Origin: a virus
Virus record (IMG/VR): IMGVR_UViG_3300043409_001462
Coordinates: 109,385 to 173,384 of that record
Strand: one strand, 5' to 3'
Length of the DNA: 64,000 bases
A model generated the notes under the pieces. It ran no database searches and had not been told where the DNA came from. It saw only the letters and a list, made by a program, of their open reading frames with translations. Position 1 is the stretch's first letter. Every line of letters starts with the position of its first letter. Below, piece by piece: positions 5,696-45,297 of the stretch. The position numbers and the translations under genes are program-made.

Positions 5696-5703
5696 TATAA
5701 ATA
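5696..5703 (+). promoter_or_regulatory. T4 late-type promoter box
   Basis: TATAAATA immediately after tRNA-Ser; would transcribe tRNA-Trp and the autotransporter-like gene. Confidence 0.55.
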
Positions 5704-5709
5704 AAAAGT

Positions 5710-5783
5710 ATCAGTGAAGTGTTACGGTAGCACATCGGTCTCCAAAACTGAGGGCGAGGGTTCGACTCCTTCCACTGGTGCCA
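5710..5783 (+). tRNA. tRNA-Trp(CCA)
   Basis: Acceptor 5710-5716/5773-5779, stem TCGGT/ACTGA, loop CTCCAAA (CCA), discriminator G, encoded CCA. Last tRNA of the main cluster. Confidence 0.93.
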
Positions 5784-38508: not shown

Positions 38509-39211
38509 AATTATTGCTGTTACACAGCCATTGATACATAAAAGTGGCGATGTTATATATGACGAATCTGGATTTATTATTGGTGAGGCTGATGGTTTAA
38601 AACTTACAGTCGATGAATTTATCGCCTATGTTGCTCGTGTATCTAATCCAGGTAATCAACATAACACCTTGACTGCACCAAAGCTGCTTCGTTATCTTGC
38701 CAAGCATAAGCACTGGTCGCCATTCGAGATGGTTAATGTGGTTATGGAGATAAATACGACTAGAGATATTGGTCGTCAGATCCTTCGCCATCGTTCCTTC
38801 ACCTTCCAGGAGTTTAGTCAACGCTATGCAGATCCAACCAAAGATATGGGGTTTACCGTTCGTGAAGCCCGTTTACAAGATATATCCAATCGACAAAATT
38901 CCGTCGAAACGGACGATGAAGCAATTCAAAAAAGATGGATTGACCAACAAAATTGGGTCAGAGAACTCTCAATGCAAGTCTATCAGGAAGCAATCGCAAA
39001 CGGAATTGCCAAGGAGCAAGCACGTGCTGTCTTACCAGAAGGACTTATTCTTAGCCGCATGTATATGGCTGGCAGTCTTCGCTCTTGGATTCATTATTGC
39101 CAACTGAGATCTGGTATTGAAACGCAGAAAGAACATCGTGAAATTGCTCTTGATGCTTGGTATCAGATTACTGAGCACTTCCCATCTCTTAAGGATGCCC
39201 TGGATATATAA
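38498..39211 (+). CDS. thyX: flavin-dependent thymidylate synthase
   Basis: 237 aa from the ATG with GGGAG 8 nt upstream. ThyX signature RHRSFTFQEFSQRY (~97-110) and the substrate-binding SRMYMAGSLRSWIHY segment. Makes dTMP from dUMP with FADH2 and methylene-THF for phage DNA synthesis. Ends in the late box of the curli-like operon. Confidence 0.95.
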   Translation: MPAKIIAVTQPLIHKSGDVIYDESGFIIGEADGLKLTVDEFIAYVARVSNPGNQHNTLTAPKLLRYLAKHKHWSPFEMVNVVMEINTTRDIGRQILRHRSFTFQEFSQRYADPTKDMGFTVREARLQDISNRQNSVETDDEAIQKRWIDQQNWVRELSMQVYQEAIANGIAKEQARAVLPEGLILSRMYMAGSLRSWIHYCQLRSGIETQKEHREIALDAWYQITEHFPSLKDALDI

Positions 39212-39214
39212 ATA
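39207..39214 (+). promoter_or_regulatory. T4 late-type promoter of curli-like operon
   Basis: TATAAATA overlapping the thyX stop, 19 nt before the csgF-like start; GGAG site follows. Confidence 0.7.
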
Positions 39215-39233: not shown

Positions 39234-39671
39234 ATGAAGAAATTAGCGTTCATATTCTTTCTAATTTCTTCTGTTTCTTTTGCTGGTGAAATTCAATTTG
39301 GATTCAAGAGTCCATCATTTAACGGTGTAGGATACTCTTCTCATGTTCTTACTATTGAAAACTTAGAAGCAACAAGAAAGCAGAAGATATTCGACGATAG
39401 AAAATCAGCTGCTGAAAAGGCTGCTTCTGATGCAAAGAATACGAACCTAGCTAAGTTTCTCAATAACTTAGAGAGTCGTATATACGCTACTATTTCTCAA
39501 AATATTGCTTCCGAATTGTTTAAAGACGGGGGAGCATCGGCAGGTGAATTTAATATCCAAGGTAATAACTTACAGTGGGTTTCTGATGGTTCAACTATTA
39601 CGTTACGAATAACTGATCCAGGTGGAAGTGTGACGCAAGTGGTTGTACCTTATGGGAGTTTGGCATGGTAA
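39234..39671 (+). CDS. csgF: CsgF-like curli assembly protein
   Basis: 145 aa. Sec signal peptide (MKKLAFIFFLISSVSFAG), then EIQFGFKSPSFNGVGY, which matches the mature N-terminus of CsgF that inserts into the CsgG pore; next a helical region (NLESRIYATISQNIASELF) and a C-terminal beta sheet. In bacteria CsgF sits at the outer face of the CsgG channel and helps nucleate curli. Overlaps csgG by 7 nt. Confidence 0.85.
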   Translation: MKKLAFIFFLISSVSFAGEIQFGFKSPSFNGVGYSSHVLTIENLEATRKQKIFDDRKSAAEKAASDAKNTNLAKFLNNLESRIYATISQNIASELFKDGGASAGEFNIQGNNLQWVSDGSTITLRITDPGGSVTQVVVPYGSLAW

Positions 39672-40471
39672 AGTATACAGCTATAGTATTAGCTTTGTTA
39701 CTTGGTGGATGTACTGGTAAGCAAGTAACAACACAATCTGTTGTTGAAGCTGAGGTTGATGCGCCTGAGATTATAACTCACAAGCGTTTCAACGAGATTG
39801 TCAACATTACACCACCAGTTGGGGATCCTATTCCAATTGCAGTTTATCGCTTTCAAGATATGTCTGGTCAACGTAAGCCTAATAACAATTATGCATCATT
39901 GAGCTCTGCTGTTACTCAGGGCGGTGATGTATTTCTTATCAAGGCATTACAGGACGCTGGTAAGGGTAAATGGTTTCAACCTGTAGAGCGTGTTGGTCTC
40001 GAGAATTTAGTTAAAGAGCGTCAGCTTATTCGCTCGCAGAGAGAAACATATGAAAAGGATCAGGCAAAGCCACTGGTACCTCTTATTGTAGCAGGAGTTA
40101 TGATTGATGGTGGAATTGTCGGTTATGATACTAATATGGGTACTGGTGGTATTGGCGCTCGCTTTCTTGGAATAGGTGTCGACCAACAGTATCGTAAAGA
40201 TGAAATAACAGTTATGGTTCGATTGATCTCAGTCAACACTGGTGAGATATTAATATCAACTGGAGCTACTAAAACTATCTATTCTACAGGAACTAACTTA
40301 AACTTGATGAAGTTTGTTGATGCTGGTACTAAGTCGTTTGAACTTGAGGCTGGTTCTTCCGTCAACGAGCCTACAACATATGCTGTTAGAATAGCTATTG
40401 AAGCAGCTATTGTTGATATGATTAAAGAAGGCGTAAAGAAGAAAATCTGGGCTTATAAGAAAGGAAAATAA
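39665..40471 (+). CDS. csgG: CsgG-like outer-membrane curli secretion lipoprotein
   Basis: 268 aa. Lipobox LGGC near residue 16. Strong CsgG signatures: PIPIAVYRFQDMSGQRKP, SSAVTQGGDVFLIKAL, WFQPVERVGLENLVKERQLIR and the later barrel-forming region. CsgG forms a nonameric outer-membrane channel that exports unfolded curlin. Lies between csgF and a curlin-repeat gene. Confidence 0.9.
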   Translation: MVKYTAIVLALLLGGCTGKQVTTQSVVEAEVDAPEIITHKRFNEIVNITPPVGDPIPIAVYRFQDMSGQRKPNNNYASLSSAVTQGGDVFLIKALQDAGKGKWFQPVERVGLENLVKERQLIRSQRETYEKDQAKPLVPLIVAGVMIDGGIVGYDTNMGTGGIGARFLGIGVDQQYRKDEITVMVRLISVNTGEILISTGATKTIYSTGTNLNLMKFVDAGTKSFELEAGSSVNEPTTYAVRIAIEAAIVDMIKEGVKKKIWAYKKGK

Positions 40472-41146
40472 ATGAAAACACTAACAAGAATGATTGCGTT
40501 TTTGTCATTCTTTGTTATGATTCAGTATGCATATGCGGCAGGTAATAAAATATACGTTGACCAAATTGGTGATGGTTCAAATATAACTATGACGCAAACT
40601 GGAAGTGATAACGGGATTGGTACACCTACCACCCGTAGTATGTTTAGTGGCACAAACAACACAGTAACAGTATCTCAAATAGGTAATCAAAACAACCAAT
40701 TAATCAAAGTAATTGGTGATGGTGTTACTTTGAATTCAACTATCACTGGTAATACAAACCAAGTTGATATTGAATGTACTTCTTGTACAGCATCAAGTAT
40801 AACCAGTGCAGTAACTGGTAGTAGTAATTTAGTTACAATAACTAACGAAAATTTAACAAATACAGCTTTAACAATTGATTCAGATAATAACACTGTCACA
40901 ATGACCAATAACTCATCTTCTATTGGCGGCGTAAATAACGTCATCAATATTTCTGGTGGTAATGGCAACCAAGTAACCATTGATCAAACAGGGGTTGCTG
41001 GTCCACTTGGTCATAAGATTGATTTGGCAGTAACTGGTGCGCTTAATAATGTTCAAATAGGACAAGGCGGATCAGTTGATTCAATCGTTAATAGTACGAT
41101 TACTGGCTCTAGCAACACTCTTATTATTAAGTCTAACCACCAGTAG
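40472..41146 (+). CDS. curlin-repeat protein (CsgA/B-like)
   Basis: 224 aa. Signal peptide to about residue 23 (AYAAG). The rest is ~8 short Asn/Gln/Gly/Thr-rich repeats with the NxVxIxQxG-type pattern (e.g. NTVTVSQIGNQNNQ; NQVTIDQTG; NNVQIGQGG), as in amyloid curlin subunits. Likely the cargo of the CsgG channel. Starts directly after the csgG stop. Its last 71 nt also encode the start of the FecR protein. Confidence 0.8.
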   Translation: MKTLTRMIAFLSFFVMIQYAYAAGNKIYVDQIGDGSNITMTQTGSDNGIGTPTTRSMFSGTNNTVTVSQIGNQNNQLIKVIGDGVTLNSTITGNTNQVDIECTSCTASSITSAVTGSSNLVTITNENLTNTALTIDSDNNTVTMTNNSSSIGGVNNVINISGGNGNQVTIDQTGVAGPLGHKIDLAVTGALNNVQIGQGGSVDSIVNSTITGSSNTLIIKSNHQ

Positions 41147-42182
41147 TGGTGAAATAGGCAAGGTTACAGAGCAATCTGGACCTACTGAAATACGCAGAGA
41201 CAAAGCAAACTTACCTAGCTCAATATCATCAGGTATTGAGATGAGTGATATTGTTACTACGGCTAATAGCAAAACTGCTATTACATTTAAAGATGATACT
41301 AAGGTACAAATAACAGAACAGAGTAAACTTGTTATTGATACGTTTGTTTATGATGGTGAAAAGAAAACTGGTAAACTTGCTATCAAGATGGCTCTTGGCA
41401 CTATTAAATATGCAAGCGGTCAGATAGCAAAAAATGACCCACAGCAAGTTGTGGTAGAAACACCAACAGCAACGATTGGTGTAAGAGGAACAGATTTTTC
41501 GGGGACTGTAGATGAAACTGGACGCTCAACAATCATATTGTTACCATCATGCCCACTGGGTTGGAAAAGTATTGAAAGAGATTGTGTTACTGGTAATATT
41601 TCTGTCACTACTATTATGGGCACTATCTGGTTAACAAAACCGTTCGAAGCAGTTGTTGTTAATACAGTTATAGCACAACCAAAGTCAGCTATATTGAATC
41701 TCAGTTTAGATCAGATTAATAATATGCTGATCGTTACGCCTCCTAAAGAAGTTAGAGAAGAGCGTACAAGAGATAAAAGTAAAGCTTTCAATTTTCTTGA
41801 TGAGAATGCTCTTGATAAAGATCTGTTAAAATTTGATGGTTTAGATAACAATGCATTAGATAAACCAACAGGTCTAGAAAGAAACTATTTAGATTCTGAT
41901 TTCCTTTTGAACTATTTGGATATTCAGAACAGTCAAATGTTGAGTAATGAACTGGATGAGTTTAATGGATTGTTGCCTAAATATAATAAATCTACAGGGT
42001 TGAAATATACGGTTGATGATACTACTTTGTCATTGTATAGGGAAACCTATTCTAGTTATTTTGAATTAAAAGTAGATACAACAAGAAGCTTGACTTTGAA
42101 TATTAATCAAGATAACCTAGCAATTAAACAGATAGTAAATAGTGCTGGATCAACAACAATAACAATAAAACAGAGTAACTGA
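41076..42182 (+). CDS. FecR-domain exported protein (TTG start)
   Basis: 368 aa. TTG start at 41076 gives a signal peptide with core LLALATLLLLSL overlapping the end of the curlin gene; no later start in frame would supply one. The FecR domain (~25-200) includes DIVTTANSKTAITFKDDTKVQI and VETPTATIGVRGTDF. C-terminal half is Asn/Leu/Asp-rich. In bacteria FecR-domain proteins often neighbour CHASE2 cyclases, as here. Probably periplasmic. Confidence 0.75.
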   Translation: MIQSLIVRLLALATLLLLSLTTSSGEIGKVTEQSGPTEIRRDKANLPSSISSGIEMSDIVTTANSKTAITFKDDTKVQITEQSKLVIDTFVYDGEKKTGKLAIKMALGTIKYASGQIAKNDPQQVVVETPTATIGVRGTDFSGTVDETGRSTIILLPSCPLGWKSIERDCVTGNISVTTIMGTIWLTKPFEAVVVNTVIAQPKSAILNLSLDQINNMLIVTPPKEVREERTRDKSKAFNFLDENALDKDLLKFDGLDNNALDKPTGLERNYLDSDFLLNYLDIQNSQMLSNELDEFNGLLPKYNKSTGLKYTVDDTTLSLYRETYSSYFELKVDTTRSLTLNINQDNLAIKQIVNSAGSTTITIKQSN

Positions 42183-42183
42183 T

Positions 42184-42462
42184 ATGTCATTACTTCGTAT
42201 AGCAATATTATTGATTTTCGTTAATTTGAGCTGTTATGCTAATGCTCAAACCGTAAACAATGCAACCGTGAATATACAAGGAGCGAATCAAAGTGTATCT
42301 ATTACTCAGTCTGGTGCTGGCCATTCTGCTAATCTTAACTTTATTGGCGATAGCATCAATGCAATTATCTCTCAAACTGGAAACACACCTCAGTCGTTTA
42401 GCCTTTCTGTTACTTGTGGTTACAGTTGTCCTGTCTCCCCTTATATTGTTAATCAGTACTAG
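42184..42462 (+). CDS. short curlin-repeat protein (CsgB-like)
   Basis: 92 aa. Signal peptide ending ANAQ (~21), then two or three curlin-type repeats (NATVNIQGANQSVSITQSGAGHS; DSINAIISQTGN) and a short Cys-containing tail. Small size suggests a nucleator or minor subunit (inference). Confidence 0.72.
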   Translation: MSLLRIAILLIFVNLSCYANAQTVNNATVNIQGANQSVSITQSGAGHSANLNFIGDSINAIISQTGNTPQSFSLSVTCGYSCPVSPYIVNQY

Positions 42463-42464
42463 CG

Positions 42465-44522
42465 ATGGAAAAGATAGGCTTATACCTCACAAGCACATGG
42501 ATGGTTGCTATCAGCGCCTGTCTCCTGTTGACATTGTATGTAATCAATCCAAGTCCTATACAAACACTTCAGCTAAAAACTTTTGATTATCTAATAACTT
42601 CACTTGATAGAAAACAATCAGATGAAATTGTCGTTGTCAACTTTGGTGAAAAGTCGGTCGAACAGTTTGGTCAGTGGCCATTCGACAGACGCGATATCGC
42701 AAAGACGATTGATAAACTAAAAGAAAACGGTGCTGCGGTAATCGTTGCACCTATTTTGTTTTCCGAAAAGGATAGAGCAGGTGGCGATGATGAACTGGCA
42801 AAAACTCTTGATGGTGTTATCCTCGCACAAACACCTACTACACAAAACAATAAGCCTGATTCGGTCCGTCGTGGGTTCGCTAGTATCGGTCCTATTGATC
42901 CTGCTGGGGTTGTCTATCGTTGGCCTGGTGGACTACGCCCTCTTGACCAGCATGCCAAAGTTGCCTCAGGAGTTGGTGTGGTCGCAACAGTTCCTGAAGT
43001 GGACGGTGTGGTTCGCCGTATTCCTTTACTTGTCAATATTGCATCTGGTCTTTATCCAAGTATTCCTTTGGAGACCATTCGTGTCGCTGCTGGAGATCCT
43101 AGCTTTCAAGTTAAGACGAACGAAGGTGGAATAGAGGCTGTAAGGGTTCCAGCGTTTCCTGCTATACCAACTGATGAAAGAGGACGAATCTGGTTAAGCT
43201 GGAATACCAAATTTGAAACAATAGAAACAACTCAAATCGACAACCGTGTCAAAGATAAGATAGTCATACTTGGTTTGACTATTGAAGGTGTTGGAGGTAT
43301 AATAGGTACTCCAATAGGTGAGAAGTGGGCACATGAGATACAAGCTCAGGCTCTTCAAACACTAGTTGATGGTACTTCTATTTCTCGCCCCAGCGTAGGA
43401 AGGCTAGTAGAAGGAATATTACTAACCACCATGCTACTACTATTGCTCCATATAGTTCCAAGACTGACTGTAGCGTTAACAGTTCCATTCTACGCTTTCA
43501 TTGTGGTTGGAGTATCAGTTTCGAGTTATTATTTATTTAAAACACAGCTGCAGTTATGGGACCCAAGTTATATAGTATTGGCTGTATCTATCATATTTGC
43601 CCATCTAGTGTTTAATAACTTTGCTCGTGAGTTTAGATTAAAGCAACAAATCAAGAAGCAATTTGGAACTTATCTTTCACCAGCTTTGGTTGAAAAGTTG
43701 CAGAAAAATCCAGAACTACTAAGATTAGGAGGAGAAACACGTGAGCTATCTATTATGTTTACTGACGTTAGGGGTTTCACGACTATTTCTGAACATTATG
43801 GTAGTGATGTACAAGGTCTTACGCAAATAATGAATCGATATATGACAGCGATGACAGCTAAGATAATTCAAAACGAAGGTACATTAGACAAGTATATTGG
43901 CGATGCTCAGATGGCGTTTTGGAATGCACCACTAGATGATGAAATGCACGCTAGACATGCAGTAAAAACGGCGTTGGAGATGTTAAATGATTTGGAACGA
44001 TTTAATAAAGAAATCGCTTTGGAAGGAGTTCCTGCTTTCGGTATGGGATTGGGTATTAACACTGGTAGTGTTGTTGTGGGTAACATGGGAAGTTCTCAGC
44101 GTTTTGATTACACATGTTTGGGTGATACTGTTAATTTGGCTTCGAGGTTAGAAGGTCAATCAAAACCATATCATGTAAAGATGGTTATCGGACCACAAAC
44201 ATATGAGTATGTTAAGGATGAATACCTATGCTTAGAGCTAGATTGTCTTGCTGTTAAGGGTAAAACAAAAGGCGTTAACATATACACTATCGTAAACAAG
44301 AATGGACTCAACATAGCCGCATCTCGCTCTCACGCAGAATTTTTAATGCATTATCGTGAACAAAATTGGGATAAAGCTCTTGAATATATACCGTATATAG
44401 AACAAGCATTCGAAGGCGATATGATAGAATACTATGAAATGATGAAAGAGAGAGTAGAGGACTATAAGAAGAATCCTCTATCAAAGGATTGGGATGGAGT
44501 ATATCGTACCAACAGCAAGTAA
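42465..44522 (+). CDS. CHASE2 membrane adenylate/guanylate cyclase (class III)
   Basis: 685 aa. N-terminal membrane helix (~8-30), extracytoplasmic CHASE2 sensor (~40-290; FDYLITSLDRKQSDEIVVVNFGEKSVEQFGQWPFDR), three membrane helices (~305-390), then a class III cyclase domain: FTDVRGFT (metal Asp434), LDKYIGDAQMAFW (Asp480) and YTCLGDTVNLASRLEG. Complete catalytic motifs, so likely active and producing cAMP or cGMP. Last gene of the curli/FecR operon. Confidence 0.9.
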   Translation: MEKIGLYLTSTWMVAISACLLLTLYVINPSPIQTLQLKTFDYLITSLDRKQSDEIVVVNFGEKSVEQFGQWPFDRRDIAKTIDKLKENGAAVIVAPILFSEKDRAGGDDELAKTLDGVILAQTPTTQNNKPDSVRRGFASIGPIDPAGVVYRWPGGLRPLDQHAKVASGVGVVATVPEVDGVVRRIPLLVNIASGLYPSIPLETIRVAAGDPSFQVKTNEGGIEAVRVPAFPAIPTDERGRIWLSWNTKFETIETTQIDNRVKDKIVILGLTIEGVGGIIGTPIGEKWAHEIQAQALQTLVDGTSISRPSVGRLVEGILLTTMLLLLLHIVPRLTVALTVPFYAFIVVGVSVSSYYLFKTQLQLWDPSYIVLAVSIIFAHLVFNNFAREFRLKQQIKKQFGTYLSPALVEKLQKNPELLRLGGETRELSIMFTDVRGFTTISEHYGSDVQGLTQIMNRYMTAMTAKIIQNEGTLDKYIGDAQMAFWNAPLDDEMHARHAVKTALEMLNDLERFNKEIALEGVPAFGMGLGINTGSVVVGNMGSSQRFDYTCLGDTVNLASRLEGQSKPYHVKMVIGPQTYEYVKDEYLCLELDCLAVKGKTKGVNIYTIVNKNGLNIAASRSHAEFLMHYREQNWDKALEYIPYIEQAFEGDMIEYYEMMKERVEDYKKNPLSKDWDGVYRTNSK

Positions 44523-44540
44523 GTTTTTATACTTACTTGC
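44515..44540 (+). terminator. hairpin between convergent genes
   Basis: Perfect 9-bp stem GCAAGTAAG/CTTACTTGC with an 8-nt loop covering the stop codons of the cyclase gene and the convergent gene. No strong T tract; a bidirectional terminator or RNA stabiliser. Confidence 0.5.
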
Positions 44541-44967
44541 CTTTATTTGCTGGCTCTGCTTTGGGCTCTTGCTTTGGTGGCGTTATGGATATATTATCTA
44601 TCTTGATAGTACTATTATTATGCTTGGCTGCTAATTCTTCTGCAGCCTTAACCTGTTTATCGGCAGCTTCAAGTTCGCGAGATTGAGCTTTAGCTGCTGT
44701 TTCTACGTCGTGTAGGTGTCTTTCTGATTCAATTTCTTTACCGCGTAACTGTAATACAATATTAATTTTTTGATTCAAACGAATCAAATCATTGTCTAAC
44801 ATACGGATACGATCTATGAGTGCTATAAGTACAGTGCTGGCTTCACTTGTTACAGGTTTGATCTCTTTTGTTGCCCAGGTCCATACATAGTAAATCATAT
44901 ATCCCATGCCACCAGCGGCTACAATAGGAAATCCGTATTTGTTAATTAGTTCTGCTAACCCACCCAT
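44533..44967 (-). CDS. holin-like membrane protein
   Basis: 144 aa. Short N-terminus, one membrane helix (~11-32), then a long charged coiled coil and a Lys/Pro-rich tail. Same plan as, and partial similarity (EVGFPIASA / KYGFPIVAA) to, the adjacent gene. Candidate holin or antiholin; BhlA/UviB-like topology. Confidence 0.6.
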   Translation of the reverse strand: MGGLAELINKYGFPIVAAGGMGYMIYYVWTWATKEIKPVTSEASTVLIALIDRIRMLDNDLIRLNQKINIVLQLRGKEIESERHLHDVETAAKAQSRELEAADKQVKAAEELAAKHNNSTIKIDNISITPPKQEPKAEPANKGK

Positions 44968-45248
44968 TAGTCTCTCCTTGCATCATTTTTGCCATCTGCG
45001 CGTGCGATTCTATCCACGTCTGGCTTTACGCCCAATGCGTTTGAAACCAATGTATCGATTCGAATAACGTCATGATTCATTGTTTTGACACGATTATCAA
45101 GAGCAGTAATAATACCAGAGAGACTCTTGACCGCAGACATAACACCAGCGAGGATAAATTTCATTGTTAGAAATACAAAATATCCACCAGCACAGGCTGA
45201 AGCGATAGGAAACCCTACCTCGGCTACTAATTTAAACCATTCATCCAT
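44967..45248 (-). CDS. holin-like membrane protein
   Basis: 93 aa. One membrane helix (~10-35) followed by a helical charged region (IITALDNRVKTMNHDVIRIDTLV) that parallels IALIDRIRMLDNDLIRLNQKI of the neighbour. The pair look like paralogous holin/antiholin. Transcribed against the flanking genes from a minus-strand late box. Confidence 0.6.
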   Translation of the reverse strand: MDEWFKLVAEVGFPIASACAGGYFVFLTMKFILAGVMSAVKSLSGIITALDNRVKTMNHDVIRIDTLVSNALGVKPDVDRIARADGKNDARRD

Positions 45249-45264
45249 ATCAACACCTTTTTAG

Positions 45265-45293
45265 TTGACTTATCAGTAAGAATATAGTATATT
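45265..45293 (+). promoter_or_regulatory. sigma70-type promoter for nrdA
   Basis: TTGACT, 17-nt spacer, TATATT (45288-45293). Confidence 0.75.
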
Positions 45294-45297
45294 TATA
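45290..45297 (-). promoter_or_regulatory. T4 late-type promoter box, minus strand
   Basis: Minus-strand TATAAATA 41 nt before the holin-like start; overlaps the -10 box of the nrdA promoter, so the two directions may exclude each other. Confidence 0.55.

What the first reader, a model, noticed from the sequence alone, without database searches (positions are those of the whole stretch)
42465..44522. Intact membrane nucleotide cyclase encoded by a phage
Full-length CHASE2 sensor, three membrane helices and a class III catalytic domain with both metal Asp residues. A phage-encoded sensory cyclase would directly write host second-messenger levels late in infection.
Basis: partly seen in the sequence, partly recalled or inferred. 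Interest (0 to 1): 0.75.

Follow-up and report, generated by a model that had tools for sequence, protein, structure and literature searches.

The report
Phage curli cassette with adenylate cyclase
A T4-like phage carries an intact membrane-bound adenylate cyclase as the last gene of a late-expressed curli-secretion cassette that hundreds of aquatic phage contigs share; the cassette was already described in marine phages, but what reads its signal in hosts that lack the usual cAMP receptor remains open.

Summary
Window 42465-44522 (+) encodes a 685-aa protein with one N-terminal membrane helix, a periplasmic CHASE2 domain, three more helices and a class III cyclase domain. All six canonical catalytic residues are present (D434, D480, K476, T550, N557, R561), the pattern of a class IIIb adenylate cyclase. 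The gene is under purifying selection.

The interpretation needs correcting. The cyclase is the last gene of a cassette, csgF-csgG-curlin-FecR-curlin-cyclase, behind a T4-type late promoter. All 47 viral relatives with enough upstream sequence carry csgF, csgG and FecR. The cassette is published in pelagiphages and phage Melnitz, so this is a new member of a known kind.

Additions made here:
(1) A pair of small membrane proteins accompanies the cassette in 37 of 38 well-flanked phage loci, and is absent from three cellular cassettes.
(2) Three Caulobacterales MAG contigs carry the cassette among ordinary metabolic genes; publications called FecR and cyclase absent from bacterial curli operons.
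(3) 58 of 60 SAR11 genomes and 14 of 14 phage records lack a recognisable cNMP-binding domain, so cAMP to host CRP is unlikely in SAR11.

Best mechanism, inferred: a FecR/CHASE2 envelope sensor reporting curli-pore or fibre status. The downstream target is unknown.

The parts
42465..44522 (+). CHASE2 class IIIb adenylate cyclase, 685 aa: TM1 (res 11-27), CHASE2 (21-326 by Pfam), TM2-4 (312-395), catalytic domain (426-609), C-terminal tail
43764..43766 (+). metal-binding Asp D434 (FTDVRGF)
   Evidence: invariant in 83 phage cyclases
43890..43904 (+). purine-binding Lys K476 and second metal Asp D480 (DKYIGD)
   Evidence: both invariant in 83 phage cyclases
44112..44147 (+). T550 (class IIIb purine position), transition-state N557 and R561 (TCLGDTVNLASR)
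39207..39214 (+). T4-type late promoter TATAAATA, 27 b before csgF
   Evidence: exact motif before csgF in 11 of 51 viral loci against 0.19 expected, and in none before the other cassette genes
39234..39671 (+). csgF homologue
   Evidence: Pfam CsgF E 1.9e-14
39665..40471 (+). csgG homologue (outer-membrane curli pore)
   Evidence: Pfam CsgG E 2.8e-50
40472..41146 (+). curlin-repeat protein 1
   Evidence: Pfam Curlin_rpt 20.5 bits, just under the 20.7 cut-off; same place in relatives
41076..42182 (+). FecR-domain periplasmic protein with N-terminal hydrophobic signal-like segment, linker and C-terminal beta module
   Evidence: Pfam FecR E 1.1e-12; model and Foldseek match to PupR/FecR-type cell-surface-signalling domains
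42184..42462 (+). curlin-repeat-like protein 2 (92 aa)
   Evidence: position and repeats; homologues at the same place in relatives; no Pfam match
44533..44967 (-). small single-TM protein A (phrog_18771, unknown function)
44967..45248 (-). small single-TM protein B (phrog_18771, unknown function)
45290..45297 (-). late-promoter-like TATAAATA upstream of small protein B
   Evidence: single site; such motifs also occur by chance in the window

Best explanation
This is a membrane-bound class IIIb adenylate cyclase that works as the inner-membrane sensor of a phage curli-type (type VIII secretion) cassette. Late in infection one transcript makes CsgF, CsgG, two curlin-like proteins, a FecR-domain periplasmic protein and the cyclase. 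CsgG/CsgF form an outer-membrane pore and the curlins pass through it. The FecR protein bridges the envelope and reports the state of pore or fibre to the CHASE2 domain, which switches the cytoplasmic cyclase on or off, and the enzyme makes cAMP. Shown here by sequence: intact enzyme, gene order, single upstream late-promoter motif, strong linkage, purifying selection. Modelled: the FecR fold. Inferred: that it makes cAMP, that FecR is the CHASE2 ligand, and that pore or fibre status is the signal. It is unlikely to be CRP in SAR11. The two small membrane proteins that travel with the cassette only in phages are the first candidates.
For: Catalytic residues complete and conserved; nearest solved enzymes are the class III cyclases CyaB 3r5g and CyaC 1wc1. 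csgF, csgG and FecR present in 47 of 47 viral loci with enough upstream DNA, in fixed order in nearly all. Late-promoter motif before csgF only. FecR genes stand next to CHASE2 cyclases in alphaproteobacterial plasmids L084 and L086 (L085 was picked through its FecR) and within 2 kb in 3 of 20 chromosomal loci. Published FecR-CHASE2 pairs: Campylobacterota (PMC9239204), Burkholderia (PMC5192318). The FecR part is modelled as the cell-surface-signalling fold of anti-sigma regulators such as PupR (4m0h E 9.7e-5, 6ovk E 8.3e-4). Three cellular cassettes keep curli, FecR and cyclase together.
Against: FecR and CHASE2 are also often apart (17 of 20 chromosomal cyclase loci had no FecR found nearby), so the partnership is not obligate outside the cassette. 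No tool here tests binding or activity. The catalytic core of the structural model has low confidence. Without a known cAMP reader the output has no demonstrated purpose. The curlin-like nature of the FecR tail is weak: no Pfam match and only slightly higher scores than shuffles.
Confidence: 0.5

Rival explanations
1. The cyclase floods the host with cAMP and reprogrammes host transcription through CRP.
For: Intact adenylate-type catalytic residues. The three bacterial genomes that own the cassette each have 4-7 cNMP-binding domains, so CRP-like reading is natural in cells.
Against: 58 of 60 SAR11-family genomes lack cNMP-binding domains; none in 13 related phage records or the own record. The host of this phage is unknown.
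Confidence: 0.2
2. The cassette is a lysis or egress timer: CsgGF is an outer-membrane pore, the two small single-TM proteins are holin- or pinholin-like, and the cyclase is the checkpoint. This extends the proposal for phage Melnitz (PMC9004378).
For: Late-promoter motif. Two small membrane proteins near the cassette in 37 of 38 well-flanked phage loci and absent from three cellular cassettes, so they may serve something phage-specific.
Against: No holin family matches the small proteins; no endolysin was sought next to them; cAMP has no known role in lysis timing.
Confidence: 0.2
3. The cyclase is a counter-defence enzyme or decoy against cyclic-nucleotide defence such as Pycsar.
For: PADLOC PycC models match the catalytic domain (E 1.6e-25).
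Against: PycC and this protein share only the general class III domain; here the residues are of the adenylate type, and the gene is tied to curli genes in every testable locus, not to defence.
Confidence: 0.04
4. The cyclase is a passenger kept only because the cassette moves as a block.
For: Cassette moves as a block between phages and some bacteria; Melnitz has lost the transition-state Asn.
Against: dN/dS about 0.1 over the whole gene and 0.04-0.09 in the catalytic domain; catalytic residues conserved in over 80 phage sequences.
Confidence: 0.06

Closest known systems
T8SS (curli) cassette with FecR and adenylate cyclase of pelagiphages, PMC9599517
   Same: Same genes in the same order: csgF, csgG, curlin, FecR, curlin, cyclase; phage-borne.
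   Different: The 'histidine kinases' said there to precede csgF may correspond to the two small membrane proteins, which here lie downstream on the other strand (my inference, not checked against their sequences). That paper held FecR and cyclase to be absent from bacterial curli operons; three MAG contigs here contradict it.
Methylophilales phage Melnitz gp104 and Pelagibacter phage HTVC008M gp019
   Same: Homologues over 98% and 88% of the query (45% and 41% identity), same cassette, same small protein pair.
   Different: Melnitz has Ser for the transition-state Asn and Asp for Thr; the small pair lies upstream of csgF in both.
CHASE2 adenylate cyclases of Alphaproteobacteria (e.g. Sinorhizobium CyaK, CyaD1, CyaD2)
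   Same: Same domain order; near full-length similarity of 31-33%; sometimes next to FecR.
   Different: Not known from curli operons; act through the CRP-type regulator Clr (PMC13001267).
CyaB of Pseudomonas aeruginosa (3r5g) and CyaC of Spirulina (1wc1)
   Same: Class III catalytic domain, among the best solved matches.
   Different: Other sensory domains.

Membership tests
Class IIIb adenylate cyclase | Two metal Asp residues | tested here: met
   D434, D480, invariant in 83 phage sequences
Class IIIb adenylate cyclase | Purine Lys plus Thr/Ser in place of Asp | tested here: met
   K476 and T550; Melnitz has Asp at T550. Class rule from general knowledge
Class IIIb adenylate cyclase | Transition-state Asn and Arg | tested here: met
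   N557, R561
Class IIIb adenylate cyclase | Makes cAMP, bicarbonate response | not testable with these tools
   needs an enzyme assay
CHASE2 sensor protein | CHASE2 domain between TM1 and a group of TMs | tested here: met
   Pfam 143.9 bits against cut-off 26.3; helices in model
Pelagiphage T8SS cassette | csgF, csgG, curlin repeat, FecR, cyclase in order | tested here: met
Canonical curli operon of E. coli | CsgC, CsgD, CsgE | not tested
   not among the Pfam matches of the cassette genes; the rest of the phage genome was not searched for them
Pycsar PycC | Linked TIR/TM effector with cyclic-pyrimidine-binding domain | tested here: not met
   neighbours are curli genes; no cNMP-binding domain in own record
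Holin (small membrane pair) | Match to a holin family | tested here: not met
   PHROG unknown-function family only; Pfam nothing relevant

The most novel reading that the evidence does not exclude
The phage brings a closed envelope-to-cytoplasm relay of its own: curli pore and FecR as the outer part, CHASE2 cyclase as transmitter, and the phage-only pair of small membrane proteins as a new type of cyclic-nucleotide-responsive effector, used in hosts that have no cAMP signalling at all.
Probability: 0.12. Interest if true: 0.8.

Novelty: new member of a known kind. Interest (0 to 1): 0.42.

Why it matters
The cassette is common in aquatic phages, and its function has been a stated mystery since 2020 (PMC7029224). 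The cyclase would be a second-messenger enzyme in hosts such as SAR11 that seem to have no receptor for it, which turns 'what is the phage curli operon for' into a testable question: what reads the cAMP, and does it depend on the pore. The two small membrane proteins, found here in nearly every phage copy but in none of three cellular copies, give a concrete candidate to test.

Tried and rejected
First genome-contig scan with the cyclase alignment found nothing, probably because its two peptide patterns were too phage-specific; CsgG was used instead. Seven further cassette contigs in bacterial MAGs (L087, L090, L096, L101, L112, L121, L138) were not counted as cellular: for L121 and L138 the neighbours are T4-like phage genes, and all seven carry one or both of the small proteins of the phage cassettes. 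L090's two tested neighbours matched no PHROG, and the small contigs were not tested further.

Direction of transfer: the cyclase tree puts the bacterial cassettes as sister to the phages (support 80), the CsgG tree puts them with one phage group (97), and the AU test does not decide. Left open; G+C is lower around the cassette than in the upstream flank in L093 and L095, which would suit a recent arrival.

Curlin nature of the FecR tail: suggestive only. Holin identity of the small pair: no support from family libraries. Host of this phage: not determined. Pycsar: considered and rejected as above.

Full report
What is there. The window is bases 109385-173384 of a 173,384-base virus record with T4-like DNA polymerase, UvsX and DnaB-type helicase. 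ORF 42465-44522 (+) encodes 685 aa with CHASE2 and class III cyclase domains over their curated cut-offs. The metal Asp pair D434/D480, K476, T550, N557 and R561 are present and conserved among 83 phage relatives, apart from Melnitz (Asn to Ser, Thr to Asp) and HTVC008M (Thr to Ser); two further rows are cut short before these sites. Lys plus Thr is the class IIIb adenylate pattern (general knowledge). Nearest solved catalytic domains include CyaB 3r5g and CyaC 1wc1. Synonymous change far outruns amino-acid change: dN/dS about 0.09-0.12 overall and 0.04-0.09 in the catalytic domain. AlphaFold models CHASE2 and four membrane helices well, but the catalytic core poorly, probably because the alignment is too uniform there.

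Surroundings. The cyclase is the sixth gene of a compact cassette: csgF 39234-39671, csgG 39665-40471, curlin 40472-41146, FecR 41076-42182, curlin 42184-42462, cyclase 42465-44522. All 47 viral loci with more than 6 kb upstream of the cyclase carry csgF, csgG and FecR, in this order with few exceptions. TATAAATA, the T4 late promoter, stands 27 b before csgF. In relatives it occurs before csgF in 11 of 51 loci against 0.19 expected, and in none before the other five genes. This fits one late transcript; it is not an expression measurement.

A phage-only pair. Two small single-TM proteins of phrog_18771 lie just beyond the cyclase on the other strand (44533-45248). In relatives the pair lies there or, as in Melnitz and HTVC008M, directly before csgF. 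Of 38 loci with ample flanks 37 have both. Conversely, of 80 loci found through protein B, 73 show cassette genes, and the other seven end within 2 kb of the pair on its right-hand side, where a cassette might lie. Among 50,697 phage records only the six with the cyclase covering most of the query carry the pair; these are two phage lineages, so this is weak on its own. The three cellular cassettes lack the pair. PMC7029224 mentioned two hypothetical proteins in the operon and PMC9599517 one or two 'histidine kinases' before csgF; these may be the same genes, which I could not check. No library names them a holin.

Cellular copies. A CsgG scan of 84,980 species genomes found the cassette on three Caulobacterales contigs: L092 (705-kb contig, Hyphomonas MAG) between TonB receptors, acetyl-CoA hydrolase and other metabolic genes, and L093/L095 (two Caulobacteraceae MAGs) among glycosyltransferase, peptidase, acyl-CoA dehydrogenase and similar genes. 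PMC9599517 states that FecR and cyclase are not within bacterial curli operons. The exception is rare: 20 other CsgG loci examined from a sample of 299 genomes of the same order show no such FecR or cyclase nearby. Cassette CsgGs from phages and these bacteria form one group apart from ordinary curli CsgG (98); the cyclases behave likewise (100). Direction of transfer is open. These are MAG contigs, so assembly error is not fully excluded.

Who reads the signal. In 60 SAR11-family genomes, 58 have no cNMP-binding domain and 58 no class III cyclase. The two cyclase hits are copies of the phage cassette with its small pair. None of 13 related phage records, nor the own record, has the domain, while the three bacterial cassette genomes have 4-7 matches each. 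So in SAR11 a CRP route looks closed. The host of this phage is unknown, many genomes may be incomplete, and other cAMP receptors were not searched.

Mechanism. FecR and CHASE2 proteins are neighbours in several bacteria: Campylobacterota (PMC9239204), Burkholderia (PMC5192318), and alphaproteobacterial plasmids here. The phage FecR domain is modelled as the cell-surface-signalling fold of PupR-like regulators, which bind periplasmic parts of outer-membrane proteins (general knowledge). I therefore infer that FecR links CsgG or the fibre to CHASE2. Sinorhizobium gives a precedent: CHASE2 cyclases respond to a signal sensed through the outer-membrane protein NsrA (PMC13001267).

Verdict. The kind is already published (PMC9599517, PMC9004378, HTVC008M annotation), so novelty is modest. 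The additions are the phage-only membrane pair, the cellular cassettes and the missing receptor.

Noticed in passing
window 44533-45248 (-): Pair of small single-TM proteins (phrog_18771) tied to the curli-cyclase cassette in 37 of 38 well-flanked phage loci, absent from three cellular cassettes; function unknown.
   Followed up: partly
L002:7980-10031: Phage Melnitz cyclase has Ser in place of the transition-state Asn (GDSVSTAARIE) and Asp in place of Thr, so its activity may differ from the other phage cyclases.
   Followed up: no
L092, L093, L095: Caulobacterales MAG contigs with the whole csgF-csgG-curlin-FecR-cyclase cassette in a cellular neighbourhood; L095 also has a calcineurin-like phosphoesterase shortly upstream.
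   Followed up: partly
L339 (G646), L340 (G682), L094 (G007): Phage curli-cassette contigs sit inside MAGs filed as SAR11-family genomes, probably phage sequence binned with the host.
   Followed up: partly
window 41076-42182 (+), residues 302-366: C-terminal beta module of the FecR protein has strands about 22 residues apart and ends in TITIKQ-like motifs, weakly curlin-like.
   Followed up: partly
window 1-5783: Dense tRNA array: 18 tRNA genes in the first 5.8 kb, 22 in the window.
   Followed up: no
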